This document shows, one piece after another, positions 44,668-52,218 of a stretch of DNA of 64,000 nucleotides. Each line of letters opens with the position of its first letter. The first letter of the stretch is position 1. The position numbers were made by a program, and so were the translations under genes. The notes under the pieces were generated by a model. It had not been told where the DNA came from. It worked only from the letters and a program-made list of their open reading frames with translations, and searched no databases. The stretch spans positions 248,001 through 312,000 of the forward strand of contig NZ_CP066171.1 in NCBI RefSeq assembly GCF_028867705.1. The letters are read 5' to 3'. Source of the DNA: Thermoleophilum album. GTDB lineage: Bacteria; Actinomycetota; Thermoleophilia; Solirubrobacterales; Thermoleophilaceae.

Positions 44668-44690
44668 GCGCCGCTGCGCCTCAGCGGCGC
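44668..44690. terminator. bidirectional hairpin between prs and UbiB-like gene
   Basis: GCGCCGCTG (44668-44676) pairs with CAGCGGCGC (44682-44690) around CGCCT, between convergent genes and overlapping the last codon of the minus one. No T-tract. Confidence 0.55.
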
Positions 44691-46087
44691 ACGAGCGGCT
44701 CGCGGCGCGTTCCGCGTGCTTCGAAGTACTCCCACTCCGCTTCGCCGAGCTCGGTCGCGGGCGGGTCGCCGAACCACCACTCGCGCCCGATCCGGTGCCA
44801 GTTGCGGGTAGCGCGGAGCTTGCCGAGCACGGCGAGCACGCCCGTCTCCATGCGCCGGCCGAGCAGCTCGTTGGCTGGGAGGCTTTCGCGGCGCAAAAGG
44901 TCGTAGAAGCCCGAGCGCGGGTCCGACATCGCCGCGATCACACTCATCACGAGCGGCGGATCGATCGTCACTTCGCGGTCTTCGAGGTACCAGCCGGCAA
45001 CCGCGCGCACATGCTCCATCAGCCGTTCGGCATCGACCTTGCGCGGGTTGCGCAGAAAACCGAGCTCGTGGAGGGCGCGCCGGGCACGTTCGGGGTCGCC
45101 GGCGACGACAGCGTCGAGCGCCGCGACCTCGAGCTGGATCTGCTCGCGGTCGAGCTGTTTGGTCATACCGAAGTCGAGGAAGGCGACGCGACCGTCGTCC
45201 ATCAGCAGGTAGTTGCCGGGATGGGCGTCGGCGTTGAACTGCTGCAGGTGGTAGATCGAGCCGTAGTGGTAGCGGTAGACGATCTCGCCGAAACGGTCGC
45301 GTTCGGGCTGGGGGAGGGTGCGGACGTGCTCGAAGTCGTGCCCGTCGACCCACTCGGTCACCAGCACCAGGCGTCGTGACAGCCGCGTGACGACGTCGGG
45401 CACGTAGATGAACGGGTGGCCGCGGTAGGCGCGCGCGAAGGTGCGCTGGCGTTGCGCCTCGAGCTCGTAGTCAAGCTCCTCTTCGACGCGCTCGCGCAGC
45501 TCGCGCGCCACCGCACGGGCGTCGAGGCCGGGCGCTATCGCCTTCGCGAAACGCAGCACGACACCGGCGTTCTGCAGGTCGGCGCGAAGCGCCTCGGCGA
45601 TCCCCGGGTACTGGACCTTGACAGCGACGCGCCGACCGTCGTGAAGCAGCGCACGGTGGACCTGGCCGATCGAGGCGGCGGCCGCTGCCTCCTCCTCGAT
45701 CTCAGCGAACGCCTCGGCGAGCGGCATCTCGAGCTCGCGCTCGATCACCTTCCGCACCTTGCGCCACGGGAGCGCAGGTGCGTGGGCGCGCAGCTGCGCG
45801 AGCTTGCGCTGGTAGAGGTCGGCGTACTGGGGCGGCAGGAACTCGGTGTCGATGAACGACGCCAGCTGGCCGAGCTTGAGCGCGGCACCCTTCATCCGCC
45901 CGAGGGTCTCGACCATCCGCTCGGCCGCCTCCTCGTGGAGCTCCTCGAGCGCGCGCTCGGCCTCGCTGCGGCTACGGGTCAGGTTGCGCGCCCGCGTCGA
46001 GGCGTAGCGTGCGCCCTCGCGACCGAGCACCGACCCCACCGCCACCGTGCGGCGCAGGCGTCCACGGGGAAGTTCGTCTTTCGCCAC
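44681..46087 (-). CDS. ABC1/AarF (UbiB-like) atypical kinase
   Basis: 468 residues. Family elements: KGAALKLGQLASF (KxGQ), the alanine-rich loop AAAASIGQVH in place of a Gly-rich loop, VKVQYPG (nucleotide lysine), FNADAHPGNYLL (catalytic loop) and FLDFGMTK (DFG). UbiB-type proteins aid extraction or synthesis of quinones and other prenyl lipids through ATPase activity. No quinone gene is nearby. GTG 46087 is supported by TACGCT seven bases upstream on minus. Confidence 0.92.
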   Translation of the reverse strand: MAKDELPRGRLRRTVAVGSVLGREGARYASTRARNLTRSRSEAERALEELHEEAAERMVETLGRMKGAALKLGQLASFIDTEFLPPQYADLYQRKLAQLRAHAPALPWRKVRKVIERELEMPLAEAFAEIEEEAAAAASIGQVHRALLHDGRRVAVKVQYPGIAEALRADLQNAGVVLRFAKAIAPGLDARAVARELRERVEEELDYELEAQRQRTFARAYRGHPFIYVPDVVTRLSRRLVLVTEWVDGHDFEHVRTLPQPERDRFGEIVYRYHYGSIYHLQQFNADAHPGNYLLMDDGRVAFLDFGMTKQLDREQIQLEVAALDAVVAGDPERARRALHELGFLRNPRKVDAERLMEHVRAVAGWYLEDREVTIDPPLVMSVIAAMSDPRSGFYDLLRRESLPANELLGRRMETGVLAVLGKLRATRNWHRIGREWWFGDPPATELGEAEWEYFEARGTRREPLVRR

Positions 46088-46094
46088 CGCTGCA

Positions 46095-46100
46095 AGCGTA
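46095..46100 (-). promoter_or_regulatory. -10 box of UbiB-like gene, leaderless geometry
   Basis: Reads TACGCT on the minus strand, seven bases before GTG 46087. Confidence 0.45.
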
Positions 46101-46119
46101 GGCGCCCGCGCCCTTCAAG

Positions 46120-47004
46120 TTGCGAACTGTCGCTCCGACTAACGGGGCGCCTGCCTCCGCCGACGGACGAGCCATGCAAGCGCGAGCTGCCACCACCACC
46201 CCTACGCACTTCGAGCCGTTAGCGGTGCCGGACGCTGGCCCCGAGCGCCACGACGAGCGCGCGCATCTCGACGCGATCGCCGCCCGCTTCTCGAGCCACG
46301 ACGGTTTCAACGCCCGGCTCGTCGACTTCCGCTTCGAGACACTCGAGCCGTGGCTCGCGGGTGCCGAGCGGGTGCTCGAGCTGGGGTGCGCCGACGGTCG
46401 CATGACGGAACGGTTGGCGCGGTGCGTGCGCCACCTAACCGCGGTCGACGGTTCGAGCGAACAGGTCCGGCGGCTGCGCGCGCGTCTGCCCGCGGTCGAG
46501 GTGGTGCACGCGCTGTTCGAGGAGTACGTCCCGTCGCAGCGCTTCGACCGTGTCGTGCTCGCCCACGTGCTTGAACACGTGCGCGACCCGGTCGCGCTGC
46601 TGCGCCGGGCCGCCTCCTTCGCCGAGCCCGGAGGTCTGCTCCTCATCACCGTGCCGAACGCCGACTCGTTGCACCGCCAGGCGGGGGTCGCGATGGGTCT
46701 GATCGGGGCCGTGACCGACCTCGACGAACAGGATCGTCGGATCGGCCATCGCCGCGTGTACACGCGCACCGCGCTGCTCGCCGACGTCGCCGCTAGCGGT
46801 CTCGCTGTCGAACATGTCGGCGGCGTGTTCTTGAAGCCCCTTCCGAACAGCGCGATCGAGCGTTACTGGAGCGACGAGCTGATCCGCGCCTACTTCGAGC
46901 TCGGCCGCCGTTACCCCGAAATCGCCGCCGAGATCGTCGTCGTCGCCCGCGTGCCCCAAGCGACCGAGACGGGCACGCCGGAGCCAGGAGCGGCTGAAGC
47001 GTGA
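46120..47004 (+). CDS. class I SAM-dependent methyltransferase
   Basis: 294 residues from TTG 46120, or about 276 from ATG 46174; neither has a clear signal. The Rossmann SAM motifs are VLELGCADGRMTERLA (motif I), LTAVDGSSEQV and FDRVVLAHVLEHVRDP (motif IV/post-II). The C-terminal RYPEIAAEIVVVARVP resembles methyltransferases of glycan and natural-product loci. It is the first gene of a five-gene unit, overlapping the next by GTGA. Acceptor unknown. Confidence 0.85.
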   Translation: MRTVAPTNGAPASADGRAMQARAATTTPTHFEPLAVPDAGPERHDERAHLDAIAARFSSHDGFNARLVDFRFETLEPWLAGAERVLELGCADGRMTERLARCVRHLTAVDGSSEQVRRLRARLPAVEVVHALFEEYVPSQRFDRVVLAHVLEHVRDPVALLRRAASFAEPGGLLLITVPNADSLHRQAGVAMGLIGAVTDLDEQDRRIGHRRVYTRTALLADVAASGLAVEHVGGVFLKPLPNSAIERYWSDELIRAYFELGRRYPEIAAEIVVVARVPQATETGTPEPGAAEA

Positions 47005-48059
47005 GCGGGCGGTGCGGCAAAAGGGGCCGGCGGGTGCGTGTCGGCGTCGCCGGCGCCGGTGCGATGGGCGCCAACCACGCCCGCGCGCTCAACTCCCTGC
47101 CGCATCTCTGCGAGCTCGTTGCGGTCTACGACCCCGACCACGCGCGTGCCCAGGCGGTGGCGGCGCGAACCACCGCCCGCGTCTGCTCTTCGCTCGAGGA
47201 GCTGATCGAGCGCGTCGACGCCGTCTGTATCGCCTCGCCGAGCAGCTGTCACCCGCAGCAGGTGGCGCTCGCGCTCGCCGCCGGTCGCGACGTCTTCGTC
47301 GAGAAGCCGTTGGCGCTCGAGGCAGCCGCGGCGCGCTCGCTCCGCGACGACGTCGTGCGCGGCAGCGACCGCATCGTTCAGGTCGGCCACATCGAGCACT
47401 TCAACCCAGCCGTGCGCGAGCTGCGTAAGCTCGCCGCTGGCGAACAGCTCGTCGCAGTCGAGATGCAGCGCCTCAGCCCGTGGCACGGTCGGATCGCCGA
47501 CGCCGACGTGATCCAGGACCTGATGCTGCACGATGTGCACGTGCTCCTCACCCTCGCCCGGGCGCCGATCGCCGGCCTGGCCGCGTTCGCCAGACACGTG
47601 CGCAGCGCCGATCGCAGCGCCGACCACGCCGTCGCGACCGTGGCCTTCGCCGACGGCTTGATCGCGGCGCTGTCGGCGAGCCGGGTCACCGAGGAGAAGG
47701 TGCGCCGTCTGGCGGTCACGAGCGAGCACGCCTACATCACGCTCGACTACGTGCGGCGGACGATCGAAATCTGTCGCTCGACGAGCCTCCACGCTGACGC
47801 GCGCGACCAGCGCAGCTACCGGCAAGAAAGCGTCGTCGAGCGGGTGTTCGTGCCGCCCGAAGAGCCACTCGTCGCCCAGCTGCGCGCCTTTCTCGAATGC
47901 GTGCGCGAGCGTCGCCCGCCCGAGGTCGATGTCGACGACGCCGTGCGCTGTCTCGAAGTGGTCGAGGCTCTTCGCCGCAGCGCCGGGCTGGTGCCCGGCG
48001 AGCGCGGGGAACGACCTGTCGCTGCCACGGCGAGCGTGCTGGCGGGGGTGGCCGTGTGA
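47001..48059 (+). CDS. Gfo/Idh/MocA-family oxidoreductase
   Basis: 352 residues. The N-terminal Rossmann GVAGAGAMGANHARAL binds NAD(P); VFVEKPLAL carries the family EKP lysine; IVQVGHIEHFNPAV begins the C-terminal beta-sheet dimer domain. Relatives oxidise or epimerise sugars, often nucleotide sugars or inositols. The GTGA overlaps on both sides tie it to the methyltransferase and the ATP-grasp enzyme. Substrate unknown; a sugar or sugar acid is likely. Confidence 0.88.
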   Translation: MSGRCGKRGRRVRVGVAGAGAMGANHARALNSLPHLCELVAVYDPDHARAQAVAARTTARVCSSLEELIERVDAVCIASPSSCHPQQVALALAAGRDVFVEKPLALEAAAARSLRDDVVRGSDRIVQVGHIEHFNPAVRELRKLAAGEQLVAVEMQRLSPWHGRIADADVIQDLMLHDVHVLLTLARAPIAGLAAFARHVRSADRSADHAVATVAFADGLIAALSASRVTEEKVRRLAVTSEHAYITLDYVRRTIEICRSTSLHADARDQRSYRQESVVERVFVPPEEPLVAQLRAFLECVRERRPPEVDVDDAVRCLEVVEALRRSAGLVPGERGERPVAATASVLAGVAV

Positions 48060-49222
48060 GACGGGTGCTCGTGACCGGTGTGGGCGGTCCCGCCGGCGTC
48101 AACTTCGTGCGCTCGCTGCGTGCCGCGGCGGACGACTACTACATCGTCGGCACCGACACCAACCGTCACCATCTCGAGTGGCCGGAGGTCGACGCCGCCT
48201 ACGTGGCACCCCGCTGCGACGATCCCGCCTACCCCGAGTTCTTGTGCGAGCTGGTCGCGCGCGAGGGGATCGAGTTCGTCCATCCCCAGCCCGATCCCGA
48301 GGTGCGAGCGGTGTCGGAGCTGCGCGACCGCATCCCCGCCCGCGTCTTTCTGCCCGACCGCGAGACCGTTCGCATCTGTCAGGACAAGCGCCGCTCGGGC
48401 GAGCTGTGGCAGCGCGCCGGTGTCCACACCGCGCCCTCGCTCGCAGTGCGCGACCGTGCCGATCTCGAGCGAGCTGCCGAAACGCTCGGGCTGCCGTTCT
48501 GGCTGCGCGCAAGCGGCGGGGCCGGCGGGCTCGCGGCCACGCCGGTCGCCGCTGTCGAGGCGGGCTGGCACTGGTTGCGCTACTGGCAGCTCACGCGCCC
48601 CGGGCTCGAGTTCGTGGCGCAAGAGCTGCTCCCGGGCGCGAACTTCGCCTTCACCTCGCTTTGGCGCGACGGCGAGCTGGTCTGCGCACAGCTGCGGGAG
48701 CGGCTCGAGTACATCTACCCGCACCTCACGCCGTCCGGTGTGACGGGAACGCCGGCGGTCGCGGTGACGCGCGACCGTCCCGATGTCGAAGAGATCGCGC
48801 TGCGCGCGGTGCGCGCGGTCGACCGGCACGCCAACGGTGTCTTCTGCGTCGACCTCAAAGAGGACGCGGATGGTGTAGCGCGACCGACCGAGATCAACTG
48901 CGGCCGCTTTTTCACGACGAGCTACTTCTTCACCGCCGCCGGCCTCAACATCCCCGACCTCTACGTACGGTTGGGGTTCGGTGAGGACCCGCGCCCGGGC
49001 GAGATCGGGCGGTTGCGGGAAGGGCTTTTGTGGATCCGCCACATCGACTGCCCGGCGGTGCTCGCCGACGAGCACGAGCTCGCGAGCACGGGGTACCTCG
49101 GCGCGCGGGTGGACGGGCCCGCAAGCCGTCGCAGTGCCGAAGGTGTGTCGCCCGCCGTCGACGGCGACACGGATCCACCTGCCCGAGCGGCTGCACCGGT
49201 GGCAGGAGGTGCCGAGGCGTGA
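48056..49222 (+). CDS. ATP-grasp carboxylate-amine ligase-like protein
   Basis: 388 residues. The N-terminal pre-grasp Rossmann-like fold begins VLVTGVGGPAGVNFVRSL, as in carbamoyl-phosphate-synthase-like ATP-grasp proteins of surface-glycan and peptide loci. QDKRRSGELWQRAGV starts the ATP-grasp core, WLRASGGAGG resembles the nucleotide loop, and DLKEDADG with TEINCGRFF gives the metal-binding acid/Asn region. It should join a carboxylate to an amine via an acyl phosphate; the partners are unknown. GTG 48056 lies in the preceding stop, and the end overlaps the HAD gene. An acidic Ala-rich tail is present. Confidence 0.82.
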   Translation: MRRVLVTGVGGPAGVNFVRSLRAAADDYYIVGTDTNRHHLEWPEVDAAYVAPRCDDPAYPEFLCELVAREGIEFVHPQPDPEVRAVSELRDRIPARVFLPDRETVRICQDKRRSGELWQRAGVHTAPSLAVRDRADLERAAETLGLPFWLRASGGAGGLAATPVAAVEAGWHWLRYWQLTRPGLEFVAQELLPGANFAFTSLWRDGELVCAQLRERLEYIYPHLTPSGVTGTPAVAVTRDRPDVEEIALRAVRAVDRHANGVFCVDLKEDADGVARPTEINCGRFFTTSYFFTAAGLNIPDLYVRLGFGEDPRPGEIGRLREGLLWIRHIDCPAVLADEHELASTGYLGARVDGPASRRSAEGVSPAVDGDTDPPARAAAPVAGGAEA

Positions 49223-49824
49223 CGCGCGCCGGAGGCGAGGCCTTGCCGGACGGCACCGAGCTGGTGGTGCTCGACCTCGACGGAACGCTCGCGCGGCTCG
49301 ACATCGACTGGGCCCAGCTGCGAAAGCTCGCCAACGAGCGTGGCCGCGCGCTGTTGGGAGCGGCAGCACCGGTCGGCGTCCTCGCGACACTTCGCGCGCT
49401 CGCAGCCCGCGGTCACCGCGCAGTGGCGCGCGAGCTGGAAGCGGTCGTCGCCGAGCGCGAGCGCGCCGCCGCCGCGCGCTGCGAGTTGAACGCGGCTCTT
49501 TGTGCTTGGCTCGAGCGCGAAGCGGCGGGATTGCCGCTGGCCGTTCTGACGCTCAACGACGCTGCAGCGGCGCGGACCGCGCTCGCGCGCGCCGGACTCG
49601 AGGATCGCGTGGTGGCGGTCGTGGGCCGCGGCGACGCGCCGCCGAAACCCGACCCGACGGGGCTGTTTGCGATCGTCGACAGCGTCGGCTCGCGGCCGGA
49701 GCGTGTGCTGCTGATCGGCGACTCCGAGGTCGATGCCGAGTGCGCGTTCGCCGCTGGCGCTCGCTTCCGCTGGGTCGACGAGATCGGCTGTGCTTGGACG
49801 TGCGGCGACCTGTTGCGCGCGTGA
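49219..49824 (+). CDS. HAD-family hydrolase
   Basis: 201 residues. Motif I is VLDLDGTLARLD (nucleophile Asp), motif II is the serine/threonine in LPLAVLTLND, a Lys lies in PPKPDPTGLF, and LLIGDSEVDAECA supplies the acidic motif. A small helical cap is inserted after motif I. Likely a phosphatase on a small phosphorylated metabolite, perhaps a sugar phosphate of the same pathway. GTGA overlap with the ATP-grasp gene; the GT2 gene follows three bases later. Confidence 0.85.
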   Translation: MTRAGGEALPDGTELVVLDLDGTLARLDIDWAQLRKLANERGRALLGAAAPVGVLATLRALAARGHRAVARELEAVVAERERAAAARCELNAALCAWLEREAAGLPLAVLTLNDAAAARTALARAGLEDRVVAVVGRGDAPPKPDPTGLFAIVDSVGSRPERVLLIGDSEVDAECAFAAGARFRWVDEIGCAWTCGDLLRA

Positions 49825-49827
49825 GCG

Positions 49828-51513
49828 ATGAGCGCGGCTTTCCACCGAGCGGGGATAGACGGCCGCAGCGAACGCCCGGGGCCGGGCGGGGGAACAGGTT
49901 CGGGTGCAGGTGCAGGTGCAGGTGCAGGTGCAGGTGTGGGCGCGCTACCCAAGATCAGCTGTTTGATCGTCACCTACTCCTTCGAGCGCTTCATCGTGCG
50001 CGCGATCGAGAGCGCGCTCGCTCAGGACTATCCGCGCGAGCTGCTTCAGATCGTCGTCGTCGACGACGGGTCGCCCGATCGCACCCCCGAGCTCGTGCGT
50101 CCCTACAGCGACCGCGTGCGTTACGTGCGCCAGCCGAACCGCGGCTTGGTAGCCGCCTTCAATCGCGGCCTGCGCGAGATCGACGGCGACGTTTTGATGC
50201 TCCTGTCGGGCGACGACGAGTGGCCGCCGTCGCGTGCCCGGCTGCACGCCGAGTTCCTCTCCCGCCATCCCGAGGTCGGCCTCGTCTACGGCGACATGGA
50301 GGTGATCGATGCCGACGGGGCGACGATCGAGCCGTCGTTCTGGCGGGCGACCGGGCACGTGCCGCAGCGGGGTGATGTGCTCGGCCGGCTGTTGCGCGGC
50401 AACTTCATCTCCGGCGGCGCGATGTCGGTGCGGATGAGCCTCGCCGACCGCTTCGCGCCGCTGCCCGCCGACTGCGCTTGGGAAGACTGGTGGATCGCGA
50501 CGCGCGTCGCCGCGGTCGCCGCAGTCGACTACACGCCGCAGTGCGTCTACCGCTACCGCTGGCACGGCAACAACATGAATCTCGGTGCGCGCGGCCGCCG
50601 CTTCGCCGAGCTCTTGGTGCGCGAGTTGCCCTTCCGGCGCCGGCTCCTCGCAGAGGTCGAGCTCGAACGGTTGGCTGCCGAGGACGTTTACGCCGGCGCG
50701 GTAGCGCTCGTGCGTTCGCTGGCGGTGGCAAGCGAGCGCACGTCGACACCAGCGACCGAGCTCGCGCCCGTTACCGAAGCTGACCGCGAGCGCGCCGGCG
50801 AGCGTCTCGAGCGCGCCCGCGCGGCGCTTGCCGCCGGCGCGTGGCTCGACGCGCTTGCCGACACGACGCGCGCGCTCGCTGCCGACCCGCACGACCCAAG
50901 CGCCGTCGCGCTGCTCGAGCGGTGCGCGCAAGCGCTCGGCCTGGTAACACAGGCGAGCGTGCCCGCCTCCGCCGCCAGCGGCGCCGCGGCCCAGCGGCCC
51001 GCGCCGCTCGGCGATGACGTGCGCGCAGTCGTCCTGCTCGCCGACGGGCGCGAGCTCGCGGCCGCGCCCGAGCTGATCGCTGCCTACGCCCGTGTCGTCG
51101 GCGACGACGATCCAGTCACGCTCGTGATCGCGCTGCCGCCCGACGACGGCGCGGTGGTGGCGGCGCTCGAACGTGCTGTGTCGGCGGCCGGGGCCGACGG
51201 GCCCGGCAGCCCCGACCTTCTGGCGCTGCCACTGCCGGACGATGGCTGGGAGACGCTGGCGGCGTCGGCGCACGGCTTCTACGGGCCACGGCCGTCGGCG
51301 GCGGCGCTCGCCGGGCTGCCCGCAGTCGCGCCCGCCGAGCTCGCTGCTTTCCTTGCGCGTGTCGTCGAGCGCCGGAAGCGGGCGCAAGACACGGCGGGCG
51401 CAGCCGCCCCCACGCCCAGTGCGGGCACAGTCACCGACGGGCGGCGGGCGGGCACAGCCACCGACCGCCACCGGGCGAACACAGCTACCGCCGCCCGTAC
51501 CGCAACCGCTTGA
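49828..51513 (+). CDS. GT2-family glycosyltransferase with extended C-terminus
   Basis: 561 residues. The first 45 are Gly/Ala-rich, encoded in part by a hexanucleotide repeat. The GT-A domain spans about 46-275: KISCLIVTYSFERFI, VVVDDGSPDRTPELV, LSGDDEW (DxD metal motif) and GLVYGDMEV. A helical, TPR-like stretch follows at about 310-370, then an Ala/Asp region and a low-complexity tail with repeated T-A-T units. It probably adds sugar to a lipid- or protein-linked acceptor. Last gene of the five-gene unit. Donor and acceptor unknown. Confidence 0.85.
   Translation: MSAAFHRAGIDGRSERPGPGGGTGSGAGAGAGAGAGVGALPKISCLIVTYSFERFIVRAIESALAQDYPRELLQIVVVDDGSPDRTPELVRPYSDRVRYVRQPNRGLVAAFNRGLREIDGDVLMLLSGDDEWPPSRARLHAEFLSRHPEVGLVYGDMEVIDADGATIEPSFWRATGHVPQRGDVLGRLLRGNFISGGAMSVRMSLADRFAPLPADCAWEDWWIATRVAAVAAVDYTPQCVYRYRWHGNNMNLGARGRRFAELLVRELPFRRRLLAEVELERLAAEDVYAGAVALVRSLAVASERTSTPATELAPVTEADRERAGERLERARAALAAGAWLDALADTTRALAADPHDPSAVALLERCAQALGLVTQASVPASAASGAAAQRPAPLGDDVRAVVLLADGRELAAAPELIAAYARVVGDDDPVTLVIALPPDDGAVVAALERAVSAAGADGPGSPDLLALPLPDDGWETLAASAHGFYGPRPSAAALAGLPAVAPAELAAFLARVVERRKRAQDTAGAAAPTPSAGTVTDGRRAGTATDRHRANTATAARTATA
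49903..49936 (+). repeat. hexanucleotide tandem repeat GGTGCA x5 in GT2 gene
   Basis: Five perfect copies (49903-49932) and a partial sixth. Encodes a Gly-Ala run; copy-number change would alter the N-terminal length without a frameshift. Confidence 0.9.
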
Positions 51514-51564: not shown

Positions 51565-52218
51565 GTGGCAGGAGCCCAACGACCGCTGCTGGAAGTCGAG
51601 GAGCGCGCCGAGCTCGGCTCGCGCGCCGCCCGTCGCCTGCGCCGCGCCGGCCTGATTCCCGGCGTCATCTACGGCGCCGGGCACGAGCCGCTGCCCTTCA
51701 AGGTTCCGGCGGGCCGTCTGCGGCAGGTGCTCGCCGAGGGTGCCACCGTCATCGACGTCAAGGTCGGGAGCGGCAAGCCGGCGCCGGCGGTCGTCAAGGA
51801 GCAGCAGCTCGATCCCGTGCGCGACGTGGTCATCCACGTCGATCTGCAGCAGGTGCGGCTCGACGAGCGGGTCACCGCGGTCGTGCCGCTCGAGCTCGCC
51901 GGCGGCGACGACGCGCCGGGCGTCCGCCAGGGCGGCGTGCTCGACCACGTGCTCTGGGAGGTCGAGATCGAGGCGCTCGCCAGCGACCTGCCCGAGAAGA
52001 TCCTCGCCGACGTGTCGCGGCTCGAGCTCGGTTCGACGCTCACACTGGGCGAGGTCGAGCCGCCCGCGGGCGTGACGATCCTCGGCGATCCCGACGACGT
52101 GGTCGCGACGATCGTCCCGCCGACGCGCGAGGATGAGGGCGAGGCCGGCGCCGAAGAGGAGCCGGAGGTCGCCGGCCGCGGCGACTCCCAGGGCGAAGGG
52201 GAGGGCGAGAGCTCCTGA
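51565..52218 (+). CDS. rplY: 50S ribosomal protein L25 / general stress protein CTC
   Basis: Binds 5S rRNA in the large subunit. The N-terminal L25 domain (about 1-93) has GSRAARRLRRAGLIPGVIYG; the C-terminal TL5/CTC beta domain (about 95-190) has EVEIEALASDLPE. The Glu/Gly/Ser acidic tail is common in the long form. 217 residues. It is the first gene of the rplY-pth pair and overlaps pth by a CTGA. Confidence 0.95.
   Translation: MAGAQRPLLEVEERAELGSRAARRLRRAGLIPGVIYGAGHEPLPFKVPAGRLRQVLAEGATVIDVKVGSGKPAPAVVKEQQLDPVRDVVIHVDLQQVRLDERVTAVVPLELAGGDDAPGVRQGGVLDHVLWEVEIEALASDLPEKILADVSRLELGSTLTLGEVEPPAGVTILGDPDDVVATIVPPTREDEGEAGAEEEPEVAGRGDSQGEGEGESS

What the first reader, a model, noticed from the sequence alone, without database searches (positions are those of the whole stretch)
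46088..51513. Accessory five-gene operon inserted in a conserved block: candidate undescribed pathway
prs and rplY are close neighbours in many actinobacteria, but here 6.9 kb lies between them. Methyltransferase, Gfo/Idh, ATP-grasp and HAD genes overlap stop-to-start, and GT2 follows after three bases. Together they could oxidise a sugar (Gfo/Idh), amidate or ligate its carboxylate (ATP-grasp), dephosphorylate (HAD), methylate and transfer it (GT2). I know of no described pathway with exactly this set. Surface glycan or glycolipid decoration is my inference.
Basis: inference. Interest (0 to 1): 0.65.

Follow-up and report, generated by a model that had tools for sequence, protein, structure and literature searches.

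The report
Five-gene cassette for decorating surface sugars
Five overlapping genes inserted between two housekeeping genes of an actinobacterium form a real, inherited set that most likely builds and attaches an unusual amide- and methyl-modified sugar on the cell surface; the kind of chemistry is known elsewhere, this gene set was not found in the papers searched.

Summary
Methyltransferase (MT), Gfo/Idh, ATP-grasp, HAD and GT2 genes lie head to tail, with three 4-base GTGA overlaps and a 3-base gap. Of the 6.9 kb between prs and rplY, 1.4 kb is a ubiB-like gene that belongs there: in 19 of 26 relatives ubiB and rplY face each other 34-305 bases apart. The insert is about 5.4 kb. The set is not scattered. 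All five, in order, recur in a second species of the genus and in another family (G718); four of five in a third family (contig ends); ATP-grasp-HAD-MT-GT2 in a Planctomycetota-phylum genome beside Wzx/Wzy-like genes. A Gfo-ATP-grasp-HAD module starts 5 kb from a flagellin gene in another actinobacterium. The genes tested are under purifying selection. A surface-glycan role is well supported (about 0.85). The exact chemistry is inferred: the ATP-grasp, a subfamily with invariant W-x-R in place of the usual lysine motif, most likely forms an amide on an amino sugar; HAD, MT and GT2 trim, cap and transfer. Closest proven logic: Campylobacter jejuni HS:2 capsule amidation. New variant of a known kind; interest 0.4.

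The parts
44681..46087 (-). flank: ABC1/UbiB-like kinase gene, normal neighbour of rplY in the order
   Evidence: Pfam PF03109 1.5e-61; divergent from rplY in 20 of 26 relatives
46174..47004 (+). class I SAM methyltransferase (start uncertain: ORF opens at TTG 46120, ATG at 46174)
   Evidence: PF13489 3e-24; relatives align only from residue about 45 on; 46% identical to the methyltransferase next to the ATP-grasp of Planctomycetales L052
47034..48059 (+). Gfo/Idh/MocA oxidoreductase (start at GTG 47034 or 47001)
   Evidence: PF01408 4.7e-28; NF040723 UDP-GlcNAc 3-dehydrogenase 169 bits, cut-off 450; E90-K91-P92 and H166-D167 invariant in 6 of 6 aligned
48056..49222 (+). ATP-grasp ligase of a W-x-R subfamily (C-terminal 40 residues of low confidence)
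   Evidence: NF009402 94 bits, cut-off 218; AlphaFold pLDDT 83.8, best folds 2pn1 and L-amino-acid ligases; W-x-R in 16 of 16 near sequences, lysine in 8 of 8 remote ones
49219..49824 (+). HAD-superfamily hydrolase (predicted phosphatase), overlaps the ATP-grasp gene
   Evidence: PF00702 3.1e-12; D19, D21, K143, D168, D172 invariant in 4 of 4 aligned
49828..51513 (+). GT2 glycosyltransferase with a glycine-alanine linker near its start and a C-terminal extension
   Evidence: PF00535 3e-26 on residues 44-155; N-terminal 304 residues 94% identical in the same species, 55% over 496 residues in G002
51565..52218 (+). flank: rplY (bL25), then pth and mfd
   Evidence: rplY matched in 60 of 61 genomes of the order

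Best explanation
A patchily inherited cassette that makes, caps and transfers one unusual sugar of a cell-surface glycan. Shown: the genes are real, overlapping, under purifying selection where tested, inserted between ubiB and rplY, and linked in the same order in other families; related sets sit in flagellin, Wzx/Wzy-like and ABC-export glycan loci. Inferred: the Gfo/Idh oxidises a ring carbon (probably C3) of a nucleotide sugar, which an aminotransferase encoded elsewhere turns into an amine; the HAD enzyme removes a phosphate from a small acid (or from the ligated product); the ATP-grasp enzyme activates a carboxylate and joins it to the amine as an amide; the MT methylates the acyl group or the sugar; the GT2 hands the finished sugar to flagellin or to a lipid-linked glycan. 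Which partner brings the carboxylate, and which acceptor is used, is open.
For: Five genes in order in G000, G002 (L035) and G718 (L168), and MT-Gfo-ATP-grasp-HAD up to the contig end in G662, with 4-base overlaps at several junctions. ATP-grasp-HAD-MT-GT2 in a Planctomycetota-phylum genome (L174), next to a Polysacc_synt flippase and 5 kb from a Wzy_C gene. Gfo-acyltransferase-ATP-grasp-HAD starting about 5 kb from a flagellin, two GTs between (L116). Sugar-amine genes beside the ATP-grasp: DegT + Gfo (L117), hexapeptide transferase (L116), DegT + phosphosulfolactate-synthase-like + MT (L052). Own genome: DegT at 29.9 and 973 kb, PseB-like dehydratase close to the first, WecB/UDP-sugar dehydrogenase/Gfo/acyltransferase locus, three flagellin-type genes, five Bac_transf genes. 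Fold nearest to 2pn1 and, among others, L-amino-acid ligases and PylC. dN/dS 0.16-0.24 within the species for the four genes testable, two of them in part only.
Against: No substrate or product is known. No aminotransferase lies in the cassette. Biotin carboxylases and PurK score as well as the amide ligases in fold. The lysine to arginine change in the ATP-binding motif could mean altered or lost activity. Flagellin is not required: G662 (98% complete) and G199 have the module but no flagellin match. In Rokubacteria L051 the ATP-grasp stands without these partners. Cassette and flagellin genes are about 0.7 Mb apart in the window's genome.
Confidence: 0.5

Rival explanations
1. Carboxylate amidation, as in the C. 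jejuni HS:2 capsule: the ATP-grasp joins a uronic acid's C6 carboxylate to a phosphorylated amine, the HAD then removes the phosphate, and the GT2 acts only on the amidated sugar.
For: Proven chemistry with the same kinds of enzyme (PMC11800379, passages read). The genome encodes a UDP-sugar 6-dehydrogenase next to a WecB epimerase.
Against: The C. jejuni ligase is TupA-like and fused to its GT2; no TupA match in the window's ATP-grasp. I saw no UDP-sugar 6-dehydrogenase beside the W-x-R ATP-grasp in the loci whose gene lists I read. Gfo/Idh has no place in that scheme.
Confidence: 0.25
2. The cassette makes a soluble or lipid-linked small molecule (compatible solute, glycolipid or secondary metabolite), not a surface glycan.
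For: Pfam finds only GT2 domains in the glycosyltransferase; the Gfo/Idh also resembles inositol dehydrogenases.
Against: Relatives sit with flagellin, Wzx/Wzy-like or ABC-export genes.
Confidence: 0.12
3. Two or more unrelated functions that happen to share a transcript.
For: Sub-sets occur: ATP-grasp alone (L051), ATP-grasp + MT without HAD (L052).
Against: Same order kept across families at 44-69% identity, and four of the genes together across phyla.
Confidence: 0.08
4. The ATP-grasp protein has lost ligase activity and serves as a binding or regulatory subunit.
For: Arginine stands in place of the second ATP-binding lysine in 16 of 16 near sequences (the role of that lysine is recalled).
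Against: First lysine, the Glu-x-Asn site and the whole fold are kept; the change is invariant, as expected for a working variant.
Confidence: 0.1

Closest known systems
Campylobacter jejuni HS:2 capsule amidation (Cj1438 GT2 + TupA-like ATP-grasp, phosphatase Cj1435), PMC11800379, passages read
   Same: GT2, ATP-grasp amide ligase and phosphatase act together on one surface sugar
   Different: ligase is TupA-like and fused to the GT2; no Gfo/Idh or methyltransferase in the steps described in the passages read
Clostridium acetobutylicum CA_C2186-2199 modified-glycan operon with an ATP-grasp ligase (PMC4000134, passages read)
   Same: predicted ATP-grasp ligase among glycosyltransferases, a flagellar-type GT and a HAD-fused acetyltransferase
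   Different: nonulosonate-type genes; no ordered MT-Gfo-ATP-grasp-HAD-GT2 set
Methanococcus maripaludis archaellin N-glycan (threonine on the third sugar, methyl on the fourth; PMC2952790, passages read)
   Same: an attached amino acid and a methyltransferase in one motility-filament glycan
   Different: archaeal N-glycan; the threonine-attaching enzyme was unidentified in that 2010 review; no sequence comparison was made here
UDP-GlcNAc 3-dehydrogenase family (NF040723)
   Same: Gfo/Idh family, best curated model, EKP and HD residues
   Different: 169 bits against a cut-off of 450

Membership tests
PRK12767 carbamoyl phosphate synthase-like ATP-grasp (NF009402) | curated score 218 bits | tested here: not met
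   94.3 bits, E 6e-27: a relative, not a member
PRK12767 carbamoyl phosphate synthase-like ATP-grasp (NF009402) | ATP-grasp fold | tested here: met
   2pn1: Foldseek E 5.4e-20; VIA Z 28.9, rmsd 2.4, 285 aligned
ATP-grasp amide ligases (L-amino-acid ligase, PylC) | carboxylate-amine ligase activity | not testable with these tools
   fold alike (3vot_A Z 28.0, rmsd 3.5, 335 aligned; 4ffr Z 27.1, rmsd 3.2, 299 aligned), but biotin carboxylase 2vpq_A (Z 29.3, rmsd 3.6, 338 aligned) is about level
C. jejuni Cj1438-type amidation system | TupA-like ATP-grasp domain | tested here: not met
   no TupA model among Pfam matches at E 0.01
C. jejuni Cj1438-type amidation system | GT2, ATP-grasp and a phosphatase-type protein encoded together | tested here: met
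UDP-GlcNAc 3-dehydrogenase (NF040723) | curated score 450 bits | tested here: not met
   169 bits
UDP-GlcNAc 3-dehydrogenase (NF040723) | EKP lysine and HD pair | tested here: met
   invariant in 6 of 6 aligned; that these are the catalytic residues is recalled
Flagellin glycosylation island | neighbour of flagellin genes | tested here: not met
   in the window's genome about 0.7 Mb apart; met in G375
Wzx/Wzy or ABC-export glycan locus | flippase, polymerase or exporter nearby | tested here: not met
   none seen between glmU and mfd; met in L174 and L119

The most novel reading that the evidence does not exclude
A new class of surface-sugar decoration: a W-x-R ATP-grasp subfamily, coupled to an overlapping HAD phosphatase, ligates a small phospho-derived acid (glycerate-, sulfolactate- or amino-acid-like) to an amino sugar and a dedicated methyltransferase caps it, giving an undescribed methylated N-acyl sugar shared by deep actinobacteria and Planctomycetota.
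Probability: 0.3. Interest if true: 0.6.

Novelty: new variant of a known kind. Interest (0 to 1): 0.4.

Why it matters
Amide-linked caps on surface sugars help decide what phages, neighbours and environment meet first, yet the ligases that make them are known in few systems. A portable, ordered gene set with a diagnostic ATP-grasp motif would let such sugars be predicted from sequence in bacteria that are hard to grow, and gives five enzymes whose order of action can be tested directly.

Tried and rejected
Flagellin-only role: rejected because G662 and G199 carry the module without a flagellin match, though G000, G082, G002, G718 and G375 have flagellin-type genes. Phage or plasmid origin: no ATP-grasp relative among 106 candidate viral stretches, and plasmids held only weak matches in 8 records. 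Phosphosulfolactate synthase (ComA) as the missing partner: present in 23 of 101 genomes of the order but in none of the three of the genus; it lies 73-187 bases from an ATP-grasp gene in five genomes (the one aligned, G001, is of the lysine type), and next to a W-x-R one only in L052, so it is kept as a hint about the kind of acid, not as part of the cassette. Composition shift as sign of recent transfer: none, GC 0.70-0.77, as around it. Promoter and terminator scans were uninformative. Literature: searches listed no paper that I recognised as describing this gene set; only the held open-licence library was searched. From PMC4307647 (passages) and PMC2824669 (passages) nothing decisive was taken. 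Recalled and unverified: an AglU/AglV assignment in M. maripaludis, ATP-grasp genes in Proteus/Providencia O-antigen loci, and a Thermoleophilum-like identity of the strain; none is used as evidence. Context genes come from a crude gene caller of mine; those named were checked with Pfam or NCBIfam where cited.
Full report
What is there. The window is 64 kb of a 2.11-Mb single-contig genome. Between an ABC1/UbiB-like gene on the minus strand (44681-46087) and rplY (51565) lie a class I methyltransferase, a Gfo/Idh oxidoreductase, an ATP-grasp protein, a HAD hydrolase and a GT2 glycosyltransferase, all on the plus strand. Three junctions are 4-base GTGA overlaps and the last is a 3-base gap.

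The empty site. rplY was matched in 60 of 61 genomes of the order and 30 loci were held. Two are the genus itself; two of the other 28 have no upstream sequence. Of the remaining 26, 20 have the ubiB-like gene next to rplY on the opposite strand (19 with 34-305 bases between, one with 870), 3 have prs there (35, 390 and 1206 bases), and 3 show neither within the 1.5 kb held. In the window that gap is 5,477 bases.

Linked or scattered. The second species of the genus (G002, L035) has glmU-prs-ubiB-MT-Gfo-ATP-grasp-HAD-GT2-rplY-pth-mfd in the same order, at 69, 72, 77, 56 and 55% identity for the five, against 78-96% for glmU, prs and ubiB and 73-83% for rplY, pth and mfd. A genome of the same species (G082) gives dN/dS 0.24, 0.20, 0.17 and 0.16 for ATP-grasp, HAD, part of GT2 and part of Gfo. 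No other of the 101 sampled genomes of the order has an ATP-grasp match above 36% identity. Across the class, 68 of 399 genomes pass E 1e-20 with the profile, but only 4 pass 1e-140: G000, G002, G718 and G662. G718, in another family, has all five in order at 59, 57, 69, 44 and 49%, followed by a second GT2; G662, in a third family, has MT, Gfo, ATP-grasp and the start of HAD before the contig ends. Overlaps of 4 bases recur at Gfo/ATP-grasp in both, at HAD/GT2 in G718 and at ATP-grasp/HAD in G662. Among 296 genomes of the phylum, 7 pass 1e-20; of the four strong ones outside the genus, G375 and G199 have Gfo, ATP-grasp and overlapping HAD, G311 has the ATP-grasp in an ABC-export glycan locus, and G287 ends at a contig edge. 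Among 246 genomes of the phylum of the Planctomycetales record L052, 8 pass 1e-20 and two pass 1e-130: G401 with ATP-grasp-HAD-MT-GT2, and L052's own genome G389 with ATP-grasp-MT.

Setting. In G375 the module starts about 5 kb from a flagellin gene, with two glycosyltransferases between and csrA beyond. In G401 it adjoins a Polysacc_synt flippase, and a Wzy_C protein lies 5 kb on. In G311 an ABC-2 exporter pair and another flippase are neighbours. L117 adds DegT; L052 adds DegT and a phosphosulfolactate-synthase-like gene at 268 bits, cut-off 280. L051 (Rokubacteria) is the exception: no such neighbours. Flagellin-type genes are matched in G000, G082, G002, G718, G375 and G389, not in G662, G199, G287, G311, G401 and G388. 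So the module serves surface glycans in general, flagellin perhaps in some.

The enzymes. The Gfo/Idh keeps EKP and HD residues in 6 of 6 aligned; its best solved relative by sequence is 7bvj, and its best curated models are UDP-GlcNAc 3-dehydrogenase and inositol 2-dehydrogenase, both below cut-off. The HAD keeps its motif residues in 4 of 4. The methyltransferase resembles 2p7h, a protein named hypothetical. The ATP-grasp model (pLDDT 83.8) matches 2pn1, L-amino-acid ligases, PylC, PurK and biotin carboxylases. Its subfamily has W-x-R where remote relatives have a lysine motif: 16 of 16 against 8 of 8 in the 24 I aligned; the first lysine and Glu-x-Asn are kept in the near group.

How it may work. 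The neighbours of the ATP-grasp outside the genus are mostly amino-sugar genes (DegT, Gfo, hexapeptide transferase), and the window's genome has DegT genes, a PseB-like dehydratase and a WecB/6-dehydrogenase/Gfo/acyltransferase locus. I therefore favour an amide formed on an amino sugar, with the HAD supplying the acid or clearing a phosphate, the MT capping and the GT2 transferring; these steps are inference. The proven C. jejuni scheme, where a ligase joins a uronic acid to a phosphorylated amine, a phosphatase follows and a GT2 accepts only the amide (PMC11800379, passages), is the main rival and shows that this kind of team is real. The genome has five Bac_transf genes, so a lipid-linked acceptor is as possible as flagellin.

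Verdict. A real, conserved, patchily distributed cassette; surface-sugar decoration is well supported by context; chemistry and acceptor are inferred. A new variant of a known kind.

Noticed in passing
L039 (G001:C104), L042 (G075:C47), L045 (G039:C47), and G027:C90, G033:C3: A phosphosulfolactate-synthase-like (ComA, PF02679) gene lies 73-187 bases from an ATP-grasp gene in five genomes of the order; ComA occurs in 23 of 101. Possible sulfolactate-type decoration.
   Followed up: partly
G000:C1:1011461-1013941 (L126) and 1039364-1040548 (L127): GT2 proteins, one with many TPR repeats, inside the flagellar gene region and next to a flagellin: candidate flagellin glycosyltransferases.
   Followed up: partly
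G000:C1:29946-34004 (L211) and 2082139-2086506 (L049): Nucleotide-sugar loci: DegT and PseB-like dehydratase; WecB, UDP-sugar dehydrogenase, Gfo and hexapeptide transferase.
   Followed up: partly
L170-L173 (G765, G760, G639, G807): A further ATP-grasp clade in one family of the class with W-x-R followed by an altered loop, 30-32% identical to the window's, with a GT2 nearby.
   Followed up: no
window 49894-49938: GCAGGT-type repeats code for a glycine-alanine linker in the GT2 ahead of its catalytic domain.
   Followed up: no
L051 7992-9062: In Rokubacteria the ATP-grasp gene overlaps the stop of a metallopeptidase-like gene and has no glycan neighbours.
   Followed up: no
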